Source of the DNA: Marinobacter sp. F4218
Lineage (GTDB): Bacteria > Pseudomonadota > Gammaproteobacteria > Pseudomonadales > Oleiphilaceae
NCBI RefSeq assembly: GCF_019443085.1
Contig: NZ_JAHZIL010000003.1
Location: 620,001 to 684,000, forward strand
Length of the DNA: 64,000 bases
Direction of reading: 5' to 3'
Every line of letters begins with the position of its first letter. Position 1 is the first letter of the stretch. Positions 57,459-62,777 of the stretch are shown here, piece by piece. The notes under the pieces were generated by a model, which saw nothing but the letters and a program-made list of their open reading frames with translations, did not search any database and had not been told where the DNA came from. Position numbers and translations under genes: made by a program.

Positions 57459-57474
57459 TCGGTAATTCTACCGA
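57459..57474. promoter_or_regulatory. Inverted repeat at the aroK stop, upstream of the BCCT gene
   Basis: TCGGTA-ATTC-TACCGA is a perfect 6+4+6 dyad covering the shikimate kinase stop codon and lying 60 bases before the BCCT gene start. It has no U tract, so an operator for the BCCT gene is more likely than a terminator. Chance occurrence cannot be excluded. Confidence 0.35.
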
Positions 57475-57995
57475 ACCGAATCTGAACAGAGCCCCCGAAC
57501 GACCGCCTCACAGACCTCGTCCTGATTCCGGCCCTCACCGGTCACCGTCAGGTCAGCGTACTGGCAATAGAGTTGATAACGCTCTTCAAACAGCTCGTCA
57601 AGGGACTGGTCCGGCCGCCGTGAAATGCCCCGGGCGCTGTGGTCACCGATGCGTTCGATAACCAGAGCCAGGGGAATATCCAGAAACACCACTGTGCCAT
57701 TCGCCTTGAGGTGATGCATGGCCCTGGCACTGTAGACCGCACTGCCACCTGTGCTGATGATCTGGTGTTGCACATTCAGGTCCAGCAGCACCTGTTCCTC
57801 GATGTGCCGAAGCGCCCGGTAACCATCCTGGTCGACGATTTCCTGAAGAGTGCGCCCGGCCTTTTCCTGGATCAGCAGGTCGGTATCGACAAAGCCCATG
57901 CCCAGGCGCTTGGCCAACAGAACGCCAACGGTACTCTTGCCGCTGCCCGGCATACCTATCAGGATGAGGTTCTTGGCAGGATCAAGCTTGGGCAT
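57468..57995 (-). CDS. Shikimate kinase family protein
   Basis: 175 residues from the ATG at 57995. Walker A LIGMPGSGKSTVGVLLAK, DTDLLI (shikimate-binding Asp), GYRALRHIEEQVL (Arg) and IISTGGSAVYS, where the third Gly of the usual GGG is Ser, then the lid RRPDQSLDELF. It would phosphorylate shikimate at O3 in aromatic amino acid synthesis. It is not next to aroB, where the housekeeping aroK usually lies in gammaproteobacteria, so it may be a second copy or a related kinase. Confidence 0.82.
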   Translation of the reverse strand: MPKLDPAKNLILIGMPGSGKSTVGVLLAKRLGMGFVDTDLLIQEKAGRTLQEIVDQDGYRALRHIEEQVLLDLNVQHQIISTGGSAVYSARAMHHLKANGTVVFLDIPLALVIERIGDHSARGISRRPDQSLDELFEERYQLYCQYADLTVTGEGRNQDEVCEAVVRGLCSDSVR

Positions 57996-58083
57996 CGGAA
58001 CTCCAAAAAATGACAGGGCTGGCTGTAACAACCGCAGACCGGAACTGTCTGAAGTCTATAATGACTCCCGGGAGGATTTCACC

Positions 58084-59356: not shown

Positions 59357-59448
59357 GCCCATCGCCGGAGTTCCTGCCAATTTCGATTGACACCTGACCG
59401 TCCCCGCGTCTATGACATATAAACACACGTCGACCCGTTGGCGATGTC

Positions 59449-60768
59449 ATGGAATCCTCACGAAAGAACATTTTCGTTTTTGGTTCGGACGACTTTAATC
59501 TTTCCCTGATCAGGGCGCTGGATACTGCTGGCCAGTACGAACTCCATTCTCTGTTCAGTTACGGTGAAGTGAAGGGCGGCGATGAGTTTCCGGTAAAGGC
59601 ACTGTATGAAGGAGCCTTGGCGCGCCTGAACGCCTTTCCTGGCACCGTTGACGCCATCGTCGGCTATTGGGATTTCCCCGTGAGCACGCTGCTTCCTCTG
59701 CTGCGCGCCCCTTTTGGCCTGCCGTCACCCAGTTTCGAGTCGGTCCTGAAATGTGAACACAAGTACTGGAGCCGGTTGGAGCAGGCCCGTGTTGTACCCG
59801 ACCATATTCCCGATTTCTGCGTCGTCGATCCGTTTTCAGAGGATTACCGCCAACAGATCTCTATTCCCTACCCTTTCTGGATCAAGCCGGTCAAGGCAGC
59901 CTCTTCCTACCTCGGCTTCAACGTTCACAACGATGCCGACCTCGATCATGCCATTGCACAGACCCGCAGGGGCATCGCCCGATTCTCACAACCGTTCAAC
60001 TACCTCCTGCAATTCGCCAACCTGCCAGAGGACATTGCCCCCGTTGACGGCAATCACTGCATCGTCGAGAGCATGATATCCGAGGGGCGACAGTGCACAC
60101 TTGAGGGATACGTCCATGCCGGCGAAATGACAGTCTATGGCAACGTGGACTCCATTCGGGAGGGTAAGCACCACTCAAGCTTCTCACGGTACCAATATCC
60201 GTCTTCCATCCCCCACCGGGTTCAGAATCGGATGATTTCCGTCACGGAACAATTCCTCAGCCATATTGATTTCGATAACGGCCCCTTCAACATCGAGTAC
60301 TACTGGAATCAAAACAGCGACCGGATCTGGTTGCTGGAAATAAATACTCGGATCTCAAAGTCTCATTGCCCCCTTTTTCTAAAGGTGGACGGCGCGTCCC
60401 ATCACAAAGTGATGGTCGAAACCGCCCTTGGTAGAAAACCTGACTTCCCTCACCGGAAGGGCAGTTTTCGCGTTGCTGCAAAATTCATGTGGCGTGTCTA
60501 TGGCAATGCCCGGGTAAAAAAGGTGCCCTCCGCAGACCAGATAGCAGCACTCCAAGAGCGCTTCCTCGATGCCGACATACAGCTGCACATCAAACCCGGA
60601 ATGGCACTGTCTGATCTGAAAGATCAGGACAGCTATAGCTACGAGATTGCCATCATCTATATGGGAGCCGATAGCCAGAAGGAGCTGTTGCAGAAATACC
60701 GTGACGTAACCAACGCAACGGGCATAGAGCTTGAGGACCTGCACTCCGGAAGAGGGTACAACCCATGA
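59449..60768 (+). CDS. ATP-grasp ligase-like protein
   Basis: 439 residues. The N-terminal domain resembles a pre-ATP-grasp Rossmann domain (NIFVFGSDDFNLSLIRAL). The ATP-grasp part has YPFWIKPVKAASSYLGFNV (ATP-binding lysine), HCIVESMISEGRQCTLEGYV, and the metal-binding GPFNIEYYW and LLEINTRIS (E-x-N-x-R). Such enzymes join a carboxylate to an amine, thiol or hydroxyl via acyl-phosphate. The end overlaps the start of the following hydrolase by four bases, so the two enzymes are made together. I do not recognise a characterised member with this partner. Confidence 0.8.
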   Translation: MESSRKNIFVFGSDDFNLSLIRALDTAGQYELHSLFSYGEVKGGDEFPVKALYEGALARLNAFPGTVDAIVGYWDFPVSTLLPLLRAPFGLPSPSFESVLKCEHKYWSRLEQARVVPDHIPDFCVVDPFSEDYRQQISIPYPFWIKPVKAASSYLGFNVHNDADLDHAIAQTRRGIARFSQPFNYLLQFANLPEDIAPVDGNHCIVESMISEGRQCTLEGYVHAGEMTVYGNVDSIREGKHHSSFSRYQYPSSIPHRVQNRMISVTEQFLSHIDFDNGPFNIEYYWNQNSDRIWLLEINTRISKSHCPLFLKVDGASHHKVMVETALGRKPDFPHRKGSFRVAAKFMWRVYGNARVKKVPSADQIAALQERFLDADIQLHIKPGMALSDLKDQDSYSYEIAIIYMGADSQKELLQKYRDVTNATGIELEDLHSGRGYNP

Positions 60769-62777
60769 ACATCGTCCAGGATCTCCCCGAAACGGTCCAG
60801 CACATTGAAAACGAGTGGATCCCCATGCCCGACGGTGTGCGACTGGCTGCTCGATTGTGGTTGCCGGCGAGCGCGAGTACGAATCCGGTGCCTGCAATTC
60901 TCGAATACATCCCCTATCGGAAAAGGGATGGCTCACGCCTGCGCGATGACCAGATGCACCCCTACTTTGCCGGCCATGGCTACGCCTGCATTCGGGTCGA
61001 CATCCGGGGGAGCGGTGACTCTGAAGGCGTACTGAAGGATGAGTATCTCCAACAGGAACTGGATGACGGCGTATCGATTATGGAGTGGCTTGCCAGCCAA
61101 CCCTGGTGTAATGGCCGGATCGGCATGATTGGCATCTCCTGGGGCGGCTTCAACGGCCTGCAAATCGCATCCCTGCAGCCTCCCCAGCTCAAGGCCGTGA
61201 TCAGCGTCTGCTCAACGGATGACCGGTACGCCGACGATGTTCATTACATGGGTGGCTGCCTGCTCGGTGACAATCTGTCCTGGGCCTCCACCATGTTTGC
61301 TTACAACTCCCTGCCCCCCGACCCGGAAATCGTGGGCGACCGCTGGCGCGAGATGTGGTTCCAGCGGCTCGAACACAGCGGATTGTGGCTCGAAACCTGG
61401 TTGCATCACCAGCATCGGGACGACTACTGGCGCCACGGGTCCATTTGCGAGGATTTCTCGCGGATTGAAGTACCTGTGATGGCGGTCAGTGGCTGGGCGG
61501 ATGGGTACTCCAATGCTGTGTTCCGGCTGTTGGAAAACCTGCCCGGGAAGCGCATGGGCTTGATCGGCCCCTGGAGCCACAAATACCCGCACATCGGGGT
61601 ACCGGGACCGGCGATCGGGTTTCTGCAGGAATCCCTGCGCTGGTGGGACACGTGGCTGAAAGGCAAAGAAACCGGCATCATGGACGAACCGATGCTGCGA
61701 GCCTGGATGCTGGACAGCATGTCCCCCTCAACGTCCTACCATCAGCGCTACGGGCGGTGGATCAGCGAAGACGCCTGGCCTCCCTCCGACCCGCGGGAAC
61801 GCACCTACAAATTTGCGCCCTACCGGCTGATCGAAGCCACCGCAACAGCACCCAACGCCGAACTGGCGTTGCAATCGCCCCTGAGCAACGGGTTGTTCGC
61901 CGGCAAATGGTGCTCTTACAGCAATACGCCCGACCTGCCCCATGACCAGAGGGAAGAAGATGGGGGAGCCTTGATCTTCACTACCGAACCGCTTGAAGAC
62001 CCGCTGGAAATCCTTGGCGCTCCAGTGGTGGATCTGGAACTCTCGTCATCACAGCCTGTCGCCATGGTTGCTGTGCGTCTATCCGATGTGCGCCCTGACA
62101 ACAAGTCGACCAGGGTAAGCTATGGCCTGTTGAACCTGACGCATCGGAACAGCCATGCCAAGCCGTCCGCCCTGAAGTCCGATGAACACTACACCGTCCG
62201 CGTGCAATTGAACGGCATCGCCCAGAAATTCCCGCGCGGGAACCGGATTCGTGTCGCCATTTCAACCTCCTACTTCCCTCTCGCCTGGCCACCTCCGGAA
62301 TCAACCCGGCTGAAAATACATACCGCGGGCTGCCGCCTGACTTTGCCCGCCAGGCCCCCAAGGCGCGAGAGCATTTGCTTTCCGGACGCCGAAATGACCG
62401 CCAGCGGAAAAAAACGTCAACTCAGGAAGGGGCATCACGACTGGCGGGTCATCCGGGAACTCGACCGGGATAACTCGACACTGGAAGTCATCAATGACAA
62501 CGGTCGGTACTACCTGGAGGATGTCGATCTGACGATCGAGCACTGCGTAAGCGAGTGGTACAGCTATCAAGCCGACGATTTTGGCTCGGCCAGAGGGGAA
62601 ACCCTGACGACGAGGAGCTACCGGCGCGGCGACTGGCGCATCAAAACGGTCACCCGGACGTTGCTGACCTGCGACCAGAGAAACTTTTATCTGGATGCGG
62701 AACTGGATGCCTACGAAGGCGAACGCCGGATCTACTCCAGGAACTGGAACCGTGTTATCCGACGCAACCTGGTATAG
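60765..62777 (+). CDS. CocE/NonD-family serine hydrolase
   Basis: 670 residues, large for the family. The X-Pro dipeptidyl peptidase/cocaine esterase fold has RLAARLWLPA, ILEYIPYRKRDG, VDIRGSGDSEGVL, the nucleophile GMIGISWGGFNGLQIA (Ser in GISWGG), the acid AVSGWADGYSNAVF and the His in GPWSHKYPH. A C-terminal beta domain (PDLPHDQREEDGG onward) and an extra tail of about 110 residues follow. It hydrolyses an ester, amide or peptide bond; no signal peptide is seen. Overlap with the ATP-grasp gene implies a shared pathway, with the ligase forming and this enzyme trimming or releasing a product. Confidence 0.85.
   Translation: MNIVQDLPETVQHIENEWIPMPDGVRLAARLWLPASASTNPVPAILEYIPYRKRDGSRLRDDQMHPYFAGHGYACIRVDIRGSGDSEGVLKDEYLQQELDDGVSIMEWLASQPWCNGRIGMIGISWGGFNGLQIASLQPPQLKAVISVCSTDDRYADDVHYMGGCLLGDNLSWASTMFAYNSLPPDPEIVGDRWREMWFQRLEHSGLWLETWLHHQHRDDYWRHGSICEDFSRIEVPVMAVSGWADGYSNAVFRLLENLPGKRMGLIGPWSHKYPHIGVPGPAIGFLQESLRWWDTWLKGKETGIMDEPMLRAWMLDSMSPSTSYHQRYGRWISEDAWPPSDPRERTYKFAPYRLIEATATAPNAELALQSPLSNGLFAGKWCSYSNTPDLPHDQREEDGGALIFTTEPLEDPLEILGAPVVDLELSSSQPVAMVAVRLSDVRPDNKSTRVSYGLLNLTHRNSHAKPSALKSDEHYTVRVQLNGIAQKFPRGNRIRVAISTSYFPLAWPPPESTRLKIHTAGCRLTLPARPPRRESICFPDAEMTASGKKRQLRKGHHDWRVIRELDRDNSTLEVINDNGRYYLEDVDLTIEHCVSEWYSYQADDFGSARGETLTTRSYRRGDWRIKTVTRTLLTCDQRNFYLDAELDAYEGERRIYSRNWNRVIRRNLV

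What the first reader, a model, noticed from the sequence alone, without database searches (positions are those of the whole stretch)
59449..62777. ATP-grasp ligase translationally coupled to an oversized CocE/NonD hydrolase
The two genes overlap by four bases (ATGA at 60765-60768), so ligase and hydrolase are made together. ATP-grasp enzymes make amide or ester bonds; CocE/NonD enzymes cut them, often at the N-terminal side of a peptide or at acyl groups. No carrier protein, transporter or regulator is in the pair, and neither protein has a signal peptide. The hydrolase has an extra tail of about 110 residues beyond the usual C-terminal beta domain. Possible meanings are synthesis and tailoring of a small peptide-like metabolite, or a ligase/hydrolase cycle on a cellular amide. 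It is the best candidate here for an undescribed small system.
Basis: partly seen in the sequence, partly recalled or inferred. Interest (0 to 1): 0.72.

Follow-up and report, generated by a model that had tools for sequence, protein, structure and literature searches.

The report
Make-and-break gene pair of salt-loving bacteria
Two overlapping genes that recur side by side in distantly related bacteria, mostly from groups known from salty habitats, encode an enzyme predicted to join small molecules and one predicted to split them, and together they likely make and recycle a still unidentified peptide-like protectant against salt stress.

Summary
In detail: an ATP-grasp gene (59449-60768) overlaps a CocE/NonD hydrolase gene (60765-62777) by ATGA. 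The adjacency is strongly conserved: 72 of 80 named-genome loci carry the hydrolase in the same locus, 69 directly downstream; in the genus, 21 of 23 ligase copies are followed by it. No other neighbour is shared beyond close relatives, so the pair looks like a self-contained, horizontally spread cassette. The ligase model is closest to L-amino acid (dipeptide) ligases; catalytic residues of both enzymes are invariant in the alignments. Four lines point to compatible-solute chemistry: hosts mostly from marine, halophilic or soda-lake groups by name; ectoine synthase enriched in ligase genomes; a ligase branch fused to an ectoine-synthase-like domain (15 proteins); and sister hydrolases without a ligase often beside betaine or peptide importers. 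My best reading is a make-and-break module for a peptide-like compatible solute, analogous to but not a member of the NAGGN system. The substrate is unknown, neighbours of the pairs themselves give little osmolyte evidence, and the fused domain lacks one iron ligand. The hydrolase's tail is real but shared by a much wider clade. My searches found no paper describing the pair.

The parts
59449..60768 (+). ATP-grasp ligase gene, 439 aa, predicted L-amino-acid-ligase-like amide-bond-forming enzyme
60765..62777 (+). CocE/NonD (S15) serine hydrolase gene, 670 aa
   Evidence: ORF; PF02129, PF08530, TIGR00976; fold closest to cocaine esterase
60765..60768 (+). ATGA stop/start overlap (translational coupling inferred)
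   Evidence: sequence; exact 4-base overlap in 18 of 72 same-order pairs
59387..59416 (+). promoter-like TTGACA-N18-TATGAC (inferred); the TTGACA-N18-TAT pattern recurs upstream in 4 of 8 genus relatives printed: 4 of the 5 in the window's own ligase group, 0 of the 3 in another
   Evidence: read by eye; not found by the stricter consensus scan
60295..60351 (+). ligase residues E283, E297, N299, R301 (metal/ATP-site role recalled from the ATP-grasp family), invariant in the 51 aligned sequences
   Evidence: alignment A2
61137..61139 (+). hydrolase Ser125 (GISWGG), predicted nucleophile, invariant in the 42 aligned sequences
   Evidence: alignment A3; aligned with cocaine esterase
61500..61502 (+). 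hydrolase Asp246, predicted catalytic, invariant in the 42 aligned sequences
61578..61580 (+). hydrolase His272, predicted catalytic, invariant in the 42 aligned sequences
62361..62774 (+). C-terminal region, residues 533-670, ending in a predicted all-beta tail not covered by solved CocE structures
   Evidence: also present in unpaired sister hydrolases

Best explanation
The two overlapping genes are a conserved two-gene cassette, an ATP-grasp enzyme predicted to join amino-acid-type substrates through an amide bond and a serine hydrolase predicted to split that bond, which likely make and recycle a peptide-like compatible solute. Shown: the pair's conservation, co-occurrence, occurrence across phyla, conserved catalytic residues, the EctC-ligase fusion branch and the importer-linked sister hydrolases. 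Inferred: the ligase activates a carboxylate as an acyl phosphate with ATP and joins it to an amine, the product accumulates in the cytoplasm under salt, and the hydrolase cleaves it when salt falls or nutrients are needed. The exact substrates are not known; an amino acid, diaminobutyrate or betaine moiety would fit the fusion and the sister hydrolases' neighbours best.
Confidence: 0.5

Rival explanations
1. The hydrolase is a biosynthetic partner: it trims or transfers an acyl group (as alpha-amino acid ester hydrolases can, recalled) on the ligase product, so both enzymes work in one direction towards a finished metabolite.
For: Tight coupling; alpha-amino acid ester hydrolases are among the near folds.
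Against: Sister hydrolases without a ligase sit with importers, which suggests breakdown. Some ligases occur without the hydrolase.
Confidence: 0.15
2. The ligase makes a bioactive dipeptide (bacilysin-like) and the hydrolase detoxifies or activates it.
For: The closest folds are bacterial dipeptide ligases including BacD/YwfE; spread by horizontal transfer is likely.
Against: No exporter, immunity gene or further biosynthetic gene is shared widely among neighbours; host habitats look salt-linked.
Confidence: 0.1
3. The pair stores and releases nitrogen or an amino acid as a dipeptide, as cyanophycin systems do.
For: In L091 and L092 the ligase lies beside cyanophycinase, with a cyanophycin synthetase gene next to that (92% identical in L092).
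Against: Seen in only 2 of 80 loci.
Confidence: 0.12
4. The pair reversibly conjugates a signal or a toxic carboxylate with an amino acid.
For: A ligase/hydrolase pair without a pathway fits conjugation cycles; neighbours vary.
Against: EctC fusion, betaine/peptide importers beside sister hydrolases and the ectC association point elsewhere.
Confidence: 0.1

Closest known systems
L-amino acid ligases (BL00235 3VOT, RizA 4WD3, BacD/YwfE 3VMM)
   Same: ATP-grasp fold over nearly the whole model; conserved ATP-grasp residues
   Different: Only about 15% identity; those enzymes are known alone or in antibiotic clusters (recalled), not paired with a CocE/NonD hydrolase
CocE/NonD family (cocaine esterase, alpha-amino acid ester hydrolase, S15 peptidases)
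   Same: Ser/Asp/His in the expected places, both Pfam domains, TIGR00976 above cut-off
   Different: About 23% identity to cocaine esterase, an extra all-beta tail, and a fixed ligase partner
NAGGN osmolyte system (amidotransferase, GNAT/ATP-grasp synthetase, M42 peptidase; composition recalled)
   Same: Works alike in the proposed reading: an ATP-grasp ligase and a hydrolase around a dipeptide-type compatible solute
   Different: Different ligase and hydrolase families; no amidotransferase or acetyltransferase in the pair; no match to the NAGGN synthetase model TIGR03103
Ectoine synthase and orphan EctC proteins
   Same: A branch of the ligase family carries an EctC-like domain at its N terminus
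   Different: That domain lacks the third iron ligand, which published orphans keep; the window's own ligase has no EctC domain
Cyanophycin synthetase/cyanophycinase
   Same: ATP-grasp ligation and peptide hydrolysis; two lone ligases lie in such a locus
   Different: Different hydrolase family; the window's ligase showed no Mur-ligase domain

Membership tests
CocE/NonD family hydrolase (TIGR00976) | score above the curated cut-off | tested here: met
   249.4 bits against 66.3
CocE/NonD family hydrolase (TIGR00976) | Ser-Asp-His catalytic triad | tested here: met
   S125, D246, H272 invariant in 42 sequences, aligned with cocaine esterase
L-amino acid ligase (ATP-grasp dipeptide ligase) | ATP-grasp fold with N-terminal domain, like BL00235/BacD | tested here: met
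L-amino acid ligase (ATP-grasp dipeptide ligase) | forms a dipeptide from free amino acids and ATP | not testable with these tools
   needs an enzyme assay
NAGGN osmolyte system | ligase of the N-acetylglutaminylglutamine synthetase family (TIGR03103) | tested here: not met
   no match at E<=0.01 in NCBIfam; the model is in that library
NAGGN osmolyte system | M42-family hydrolase (recalled) | tested here: not met
   the hydrolase is S15/CocE
Ectoine synthase (for the fused domain of the sister branch) | PF06339 domain | tested here: met
   E 9.7e-39 in L178:9056-10735
Ectoine synthase (for the fused domain of the sister branch) | three iron ligands Glu57, Tyr84, His92 (PMC6344544, passages) | tested here: not met
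   Glu and Tyr kept, His replaced by Ile or Val in all 16 fusions P0241-P0256 aligned
Compatible-solute synthesis/turnover module | product accumulates with salt | not testable with these tools
   only genomic association

The most novel reading that the evidence does not exclude
The cassette makes a new class of compatible solute, amides of diaminobutyrate, betaine or an ectoine-like molecule, by direct ATP-grasp ligation rather than by acetylation. The branch fused to an EctC-like domain works on a close chemical relative of the ectoine precursor, using a reshaped EctC fold. The importer-linked sister hydrolases let other bacteria scavenge the same solutes.
Probability: 0.25. Interest if true: 0.8.

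Novelty: new variant of a known kind. Interest (0 to 1): 0.62.

Why it matters
If the reading holds, salty-habitat bacteria from several phyla share an unrecognised, transferable two-gene way to make and recycle an osmoprotectant, and a chemically new solute is waiting to be found by metabolomics. It would also bear on an open question: papers state that the role of solitary EctC proteins is unresolved and may involve a substrate related to the ectoine precursor (PMC5924519 and PMC6344544, passages). Here a ligase is physically joined to an EctC-like domain, which gives a concrete substrate-search route, with the caution that this domain, unlike the published orphans, has lost one iron ligand.

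Tried and rejected
Chance neighbours: rejected by conservation over phyla and by co-occurrence.

Membership in the NAGGN system: rejected, no match to its synthetase model and a different hydrolase family. Graspetide-type peptide modification: no widely conserved neighbour was found, but open frames under 90 aa were not clustered, so a very short precursor is not excluded.

Tail as a ligase-contact domain: not supported as special to the pair, because unpaired sister hydrolases have it.

Idea that the fused EctC cyclises the ligase product as a normal ectoine synthase: weakened by loss of the iron-binding His. In that alignment the own-genome EctC row was put in from the wrong strand; its correct translation is printed in the same output and was compared by eye.

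Apparent lack of hydrolase in several loci by open-frame calling was partly an artefact of long antisense frames; tblastn found it. An apparent 1176-aa two-enzyme fusion in L054 is a frame artefact: the long frame is the hydrolase's.

ABC transporter beside the unpaired hydrolase in L113 is a sulfate/thiosulfate type and is not counted as support; the aldehyde dehydrogenase fragment there scores below the betaine-aldehyde dehydrogenase cut-off.

Literature (open-licence PMC papers only): no paper holds both 'ATP-grasp' and 'CocE'. For ectoine synthase/EctC/fusion/ATP-grasp, 20 of 29 papers were listed and none of the 20 holds ATP-grasp. Listings only were seen (20 of 41, 20 of 72, 20 of 556, 20 of 38, 15 of 427 and 12 of 29,327 papers); no title or abstract start shown describes the pair. 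PMC5924519, PMC6344544, PMC7824335 and PMC10873239 were seen as passages only.

Full report
What is there. The window lies in a Marinobacter-like genome (G000:C3:620001-684000; close relatives of both proteins are named Marinobacter). An ATP-grasp gene at 59449-60768 and a CocE/NonD hydrolase gene at 60765-62777 overlap by ATGA; family scans agree. By sequence the ligase has no close characterised relative: the best phmmer hit in the PDB has E 0.061, and a profile of 51 relatives reaches urea amidolyase, carbamoyl-phosphate synthase, the L-amino acid ligase BL00235 and a biotin carboxylase.

Conservation of the pair. A scan of named genomes gave 260 relatives of the ligase; the best 80 were kept. 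With tblastn, 72 of 80 loci contain the hydrolase: 69 directly downstream on the same strand (gap up to 214 bases), 2 adjacent but divergent (L065, L079), and 1 about 1.7 kb away on the other strand and in two pieces (L092). Eight have none (L032, L033, L039, L074, L075, L077, L078, L091), of which L039 and L078 end within 1 kb. In 124 genomes of the genus, 16 have the ligase (23 copies) and 18 the hydrolase at E<=1e-100. All 16 ligase genomes have it, 21 of 23 ligase copies are followed by it on the same strand, and the two lone copies are both in G093. The two hydrolase-only genomes have much weaker matches (1e-206 and 1e-207). In 369 genomes of the class, 19 have the ligase at 1e-40 and 31 the hydrolase at 1e-100, with 15 in common (15 of 19 versus 16 of 350). 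Restricted to strong matches (ligase E<=1e-120, hydrolase E=0) it is 15 of 16 against 1 of 353. In G265 and G379 both genes are present but unlinked. Order can be reversed (G465, G390) or divergent, so linkage is kept through rearrangement.

Co-inheritance. Of 78 loci with both proteins long enough and intact, 72 run ligase then hydrolase, 2 run hydrolase then ligase and 4 are on opposite strands. One of those four is L178, where the script took the EctC-fused ligase although another ligase stands directly before the hydrolase, and L181 duplicates L065. 18 of the 72 overlap by exactly 4 bases, 16 as ATGA and 2 as GTGA; a few loci are the same sequence from two sources, such as L037 and L197. 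Distance matrices of the two proteins correlate at r 0.87 against a maximum of 0.21 in 2000 shuffles, which does not separate co-inheritance from shared ancestry. The hydrolase tree puts all 62 paired rows used and 7 unpaired ones in one supported group (98*), with most other unpaired hydrolases outside it. Planctomycetota, Actinomycetota and Bdellovibrionota rows lie among Gammaproteobacteria, which suggests horizontal spread; many of these are metagenome bins, so single labels may be wrong. In one search the largest clusters of other genes were antisense frames over the pair and a gene shared by six Halomonas loci; among 109 neighbours scanned no Pfam family has more than 3 members.

Link to salt. 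Sixty of the 80 loci carry names of groups that I know as marine, halophilic or soda-lake, such as Halomonas, Thioalkalivibrio, Thiohalocapsa, Shewanella, Photobacterium, Nitrosomonas marina and Kangiella (names, habitats recalled; the other 20 not judged; the 80 are the best matches to a Marinobacter query). Ectoine synthase (over cut-off in 53 of 369 genomes) is in 9 of 19 ligase genomes and 44 of 350 others (p 4e-4, not corrected for kinship). One genus pair (L119) follows malto-oligosyltrehalose synthase and a GH65 enzyme; a lone ligase (L115) lies a few kb from a trehalose-phosphatase-like protein and a GH65 fragment. Against this, the loci held otherwise show no EctC, BCCT or TreY relative near a pair, and the pair is absent from most of the genus, although 228 of 250 Marinobacter isolates have ectABC (PMC10873239, passages).

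The EctC fusion. In G422 a 560-residue protein joins an ectoine-synthase domain (PF06339, E 9.7e-39, residues 1-125) to this ligase (PF13535), 1.4 kb from a complete ligase+hydrolase pair, with an M20 peptidase gene between them. A protein search with the EctC part alone, limited by the tool to proteins of roughly the fusion's length, gave 18 hits, 15 with both PF06339 and PF13535, one of them named Salinisphaera; P0242 looks like a truncated sixteenth. The seven fusions put in the ligase tree form one clade (100*), sister to a paired Halomonadaceae ligase and an unpaired Alcanivorax one. In the alignment the iron ligands Glu57 and Tyr84 are kept but His92 is Ile or Val in all 16 (P0241-P0256); two EctC proteins fused to another domain and the window genome's own EctC keep the His. 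A paper reports that changing any of the three ligands to Ala leaves essentially no activity, that 582 EctC-type proteins keep them, and that the role of orphan EctC proteins is unclear (PMC6344544, passages; also PMC5924519, passages). So the fused domain is not a standard ectoine synthase and differs from the described orphans, but its presence ties the ligase family to that chemistry.

The sister hydrolases. Another, L187, lies by cytochrome bd oxidase genes; the neighbours of L184, L186 and L193-L196 were not annotated. On plasmids the hydrolase has 476 matching records, all below 60% identity. Ten loci were opened, chosen near the top of the list, not at random. One had no annotation; the nine others have ABC importer genes within 4 kb, seven immediately adjacent: mostly peptide-type or unspecified cassettes, and in Ancylobacter two hydrolase copies around a transporter annotated for glycine betaine (family checks of three binding proteins, none above its model's cut-off). 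In Fuscovulum the neighbours include a trimethylamine-methyltransferase-family protein, also below that model's cut-off. The ligase itself is almost absent from plasmids: 8 records, at most 31% identity.

Judgement. The existence of a conserved, probably mobile ligase-hydrolase cassette is secure. The best single mechanism is synthesis and recycling of a peptide-like compatible solute, at about 0.5. The most novel reading, a new solute class sharing chemistry with ectoine, is not excluded (about 0.25).

Noticed in passing
L113, L114, L168, L169: Unpaired relatives of the hydrolase lie next to BCCT-family (betaine/carnitine/choline) transporter genes; in L168 the transporter frame ends 14 bases before the hydrolase.
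   Followed up: partly
P0257, P0258: Ectoine synthase domain joined to a PF05721 domain (PhyH-type dioxygenase, name recalled), perhaps ectoine synthase with an ectoine-hydroxylase-like part.
   Followed up: no
L091, L092: Lone members of the ligase family sit beside cyanophycinase and cyanophycin synthetase genes; the ligase's role there is unexplained.
   Followed up: partly
L191 3015-6359 (L192 has a similar-sized gene upstream of its ligase): A distant ligase follows a long open frame that matches both molybdopterin oxidoreductase and class-V aminotransferase families, an odd combination.
   Followed up: no
G093 (L115-L118): One genome of the window's genus carries four ligase copies and two hydrolases.
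   Followed up: partly
G290 (L179); L068 is apparently the same genome: Two different ligases stand in tandem before one hydrolase, which may mean different substrates for sister ligases.
   Followed up: no
window 59387-59416: TTGACA-N18-TAT promoter-like pattern shared upstream of the pair with 4 of the 5 relatives printed from the window's ligase group, and with none of 3 others.
   Followed up: partly
window 57471-58031 (-): Shikimate-kinase-type protein whose best NCBIfam match is a homoserine kinase model (E 1.1e-52, 178 bits, below its cut-off of 197).
   Followed up: no
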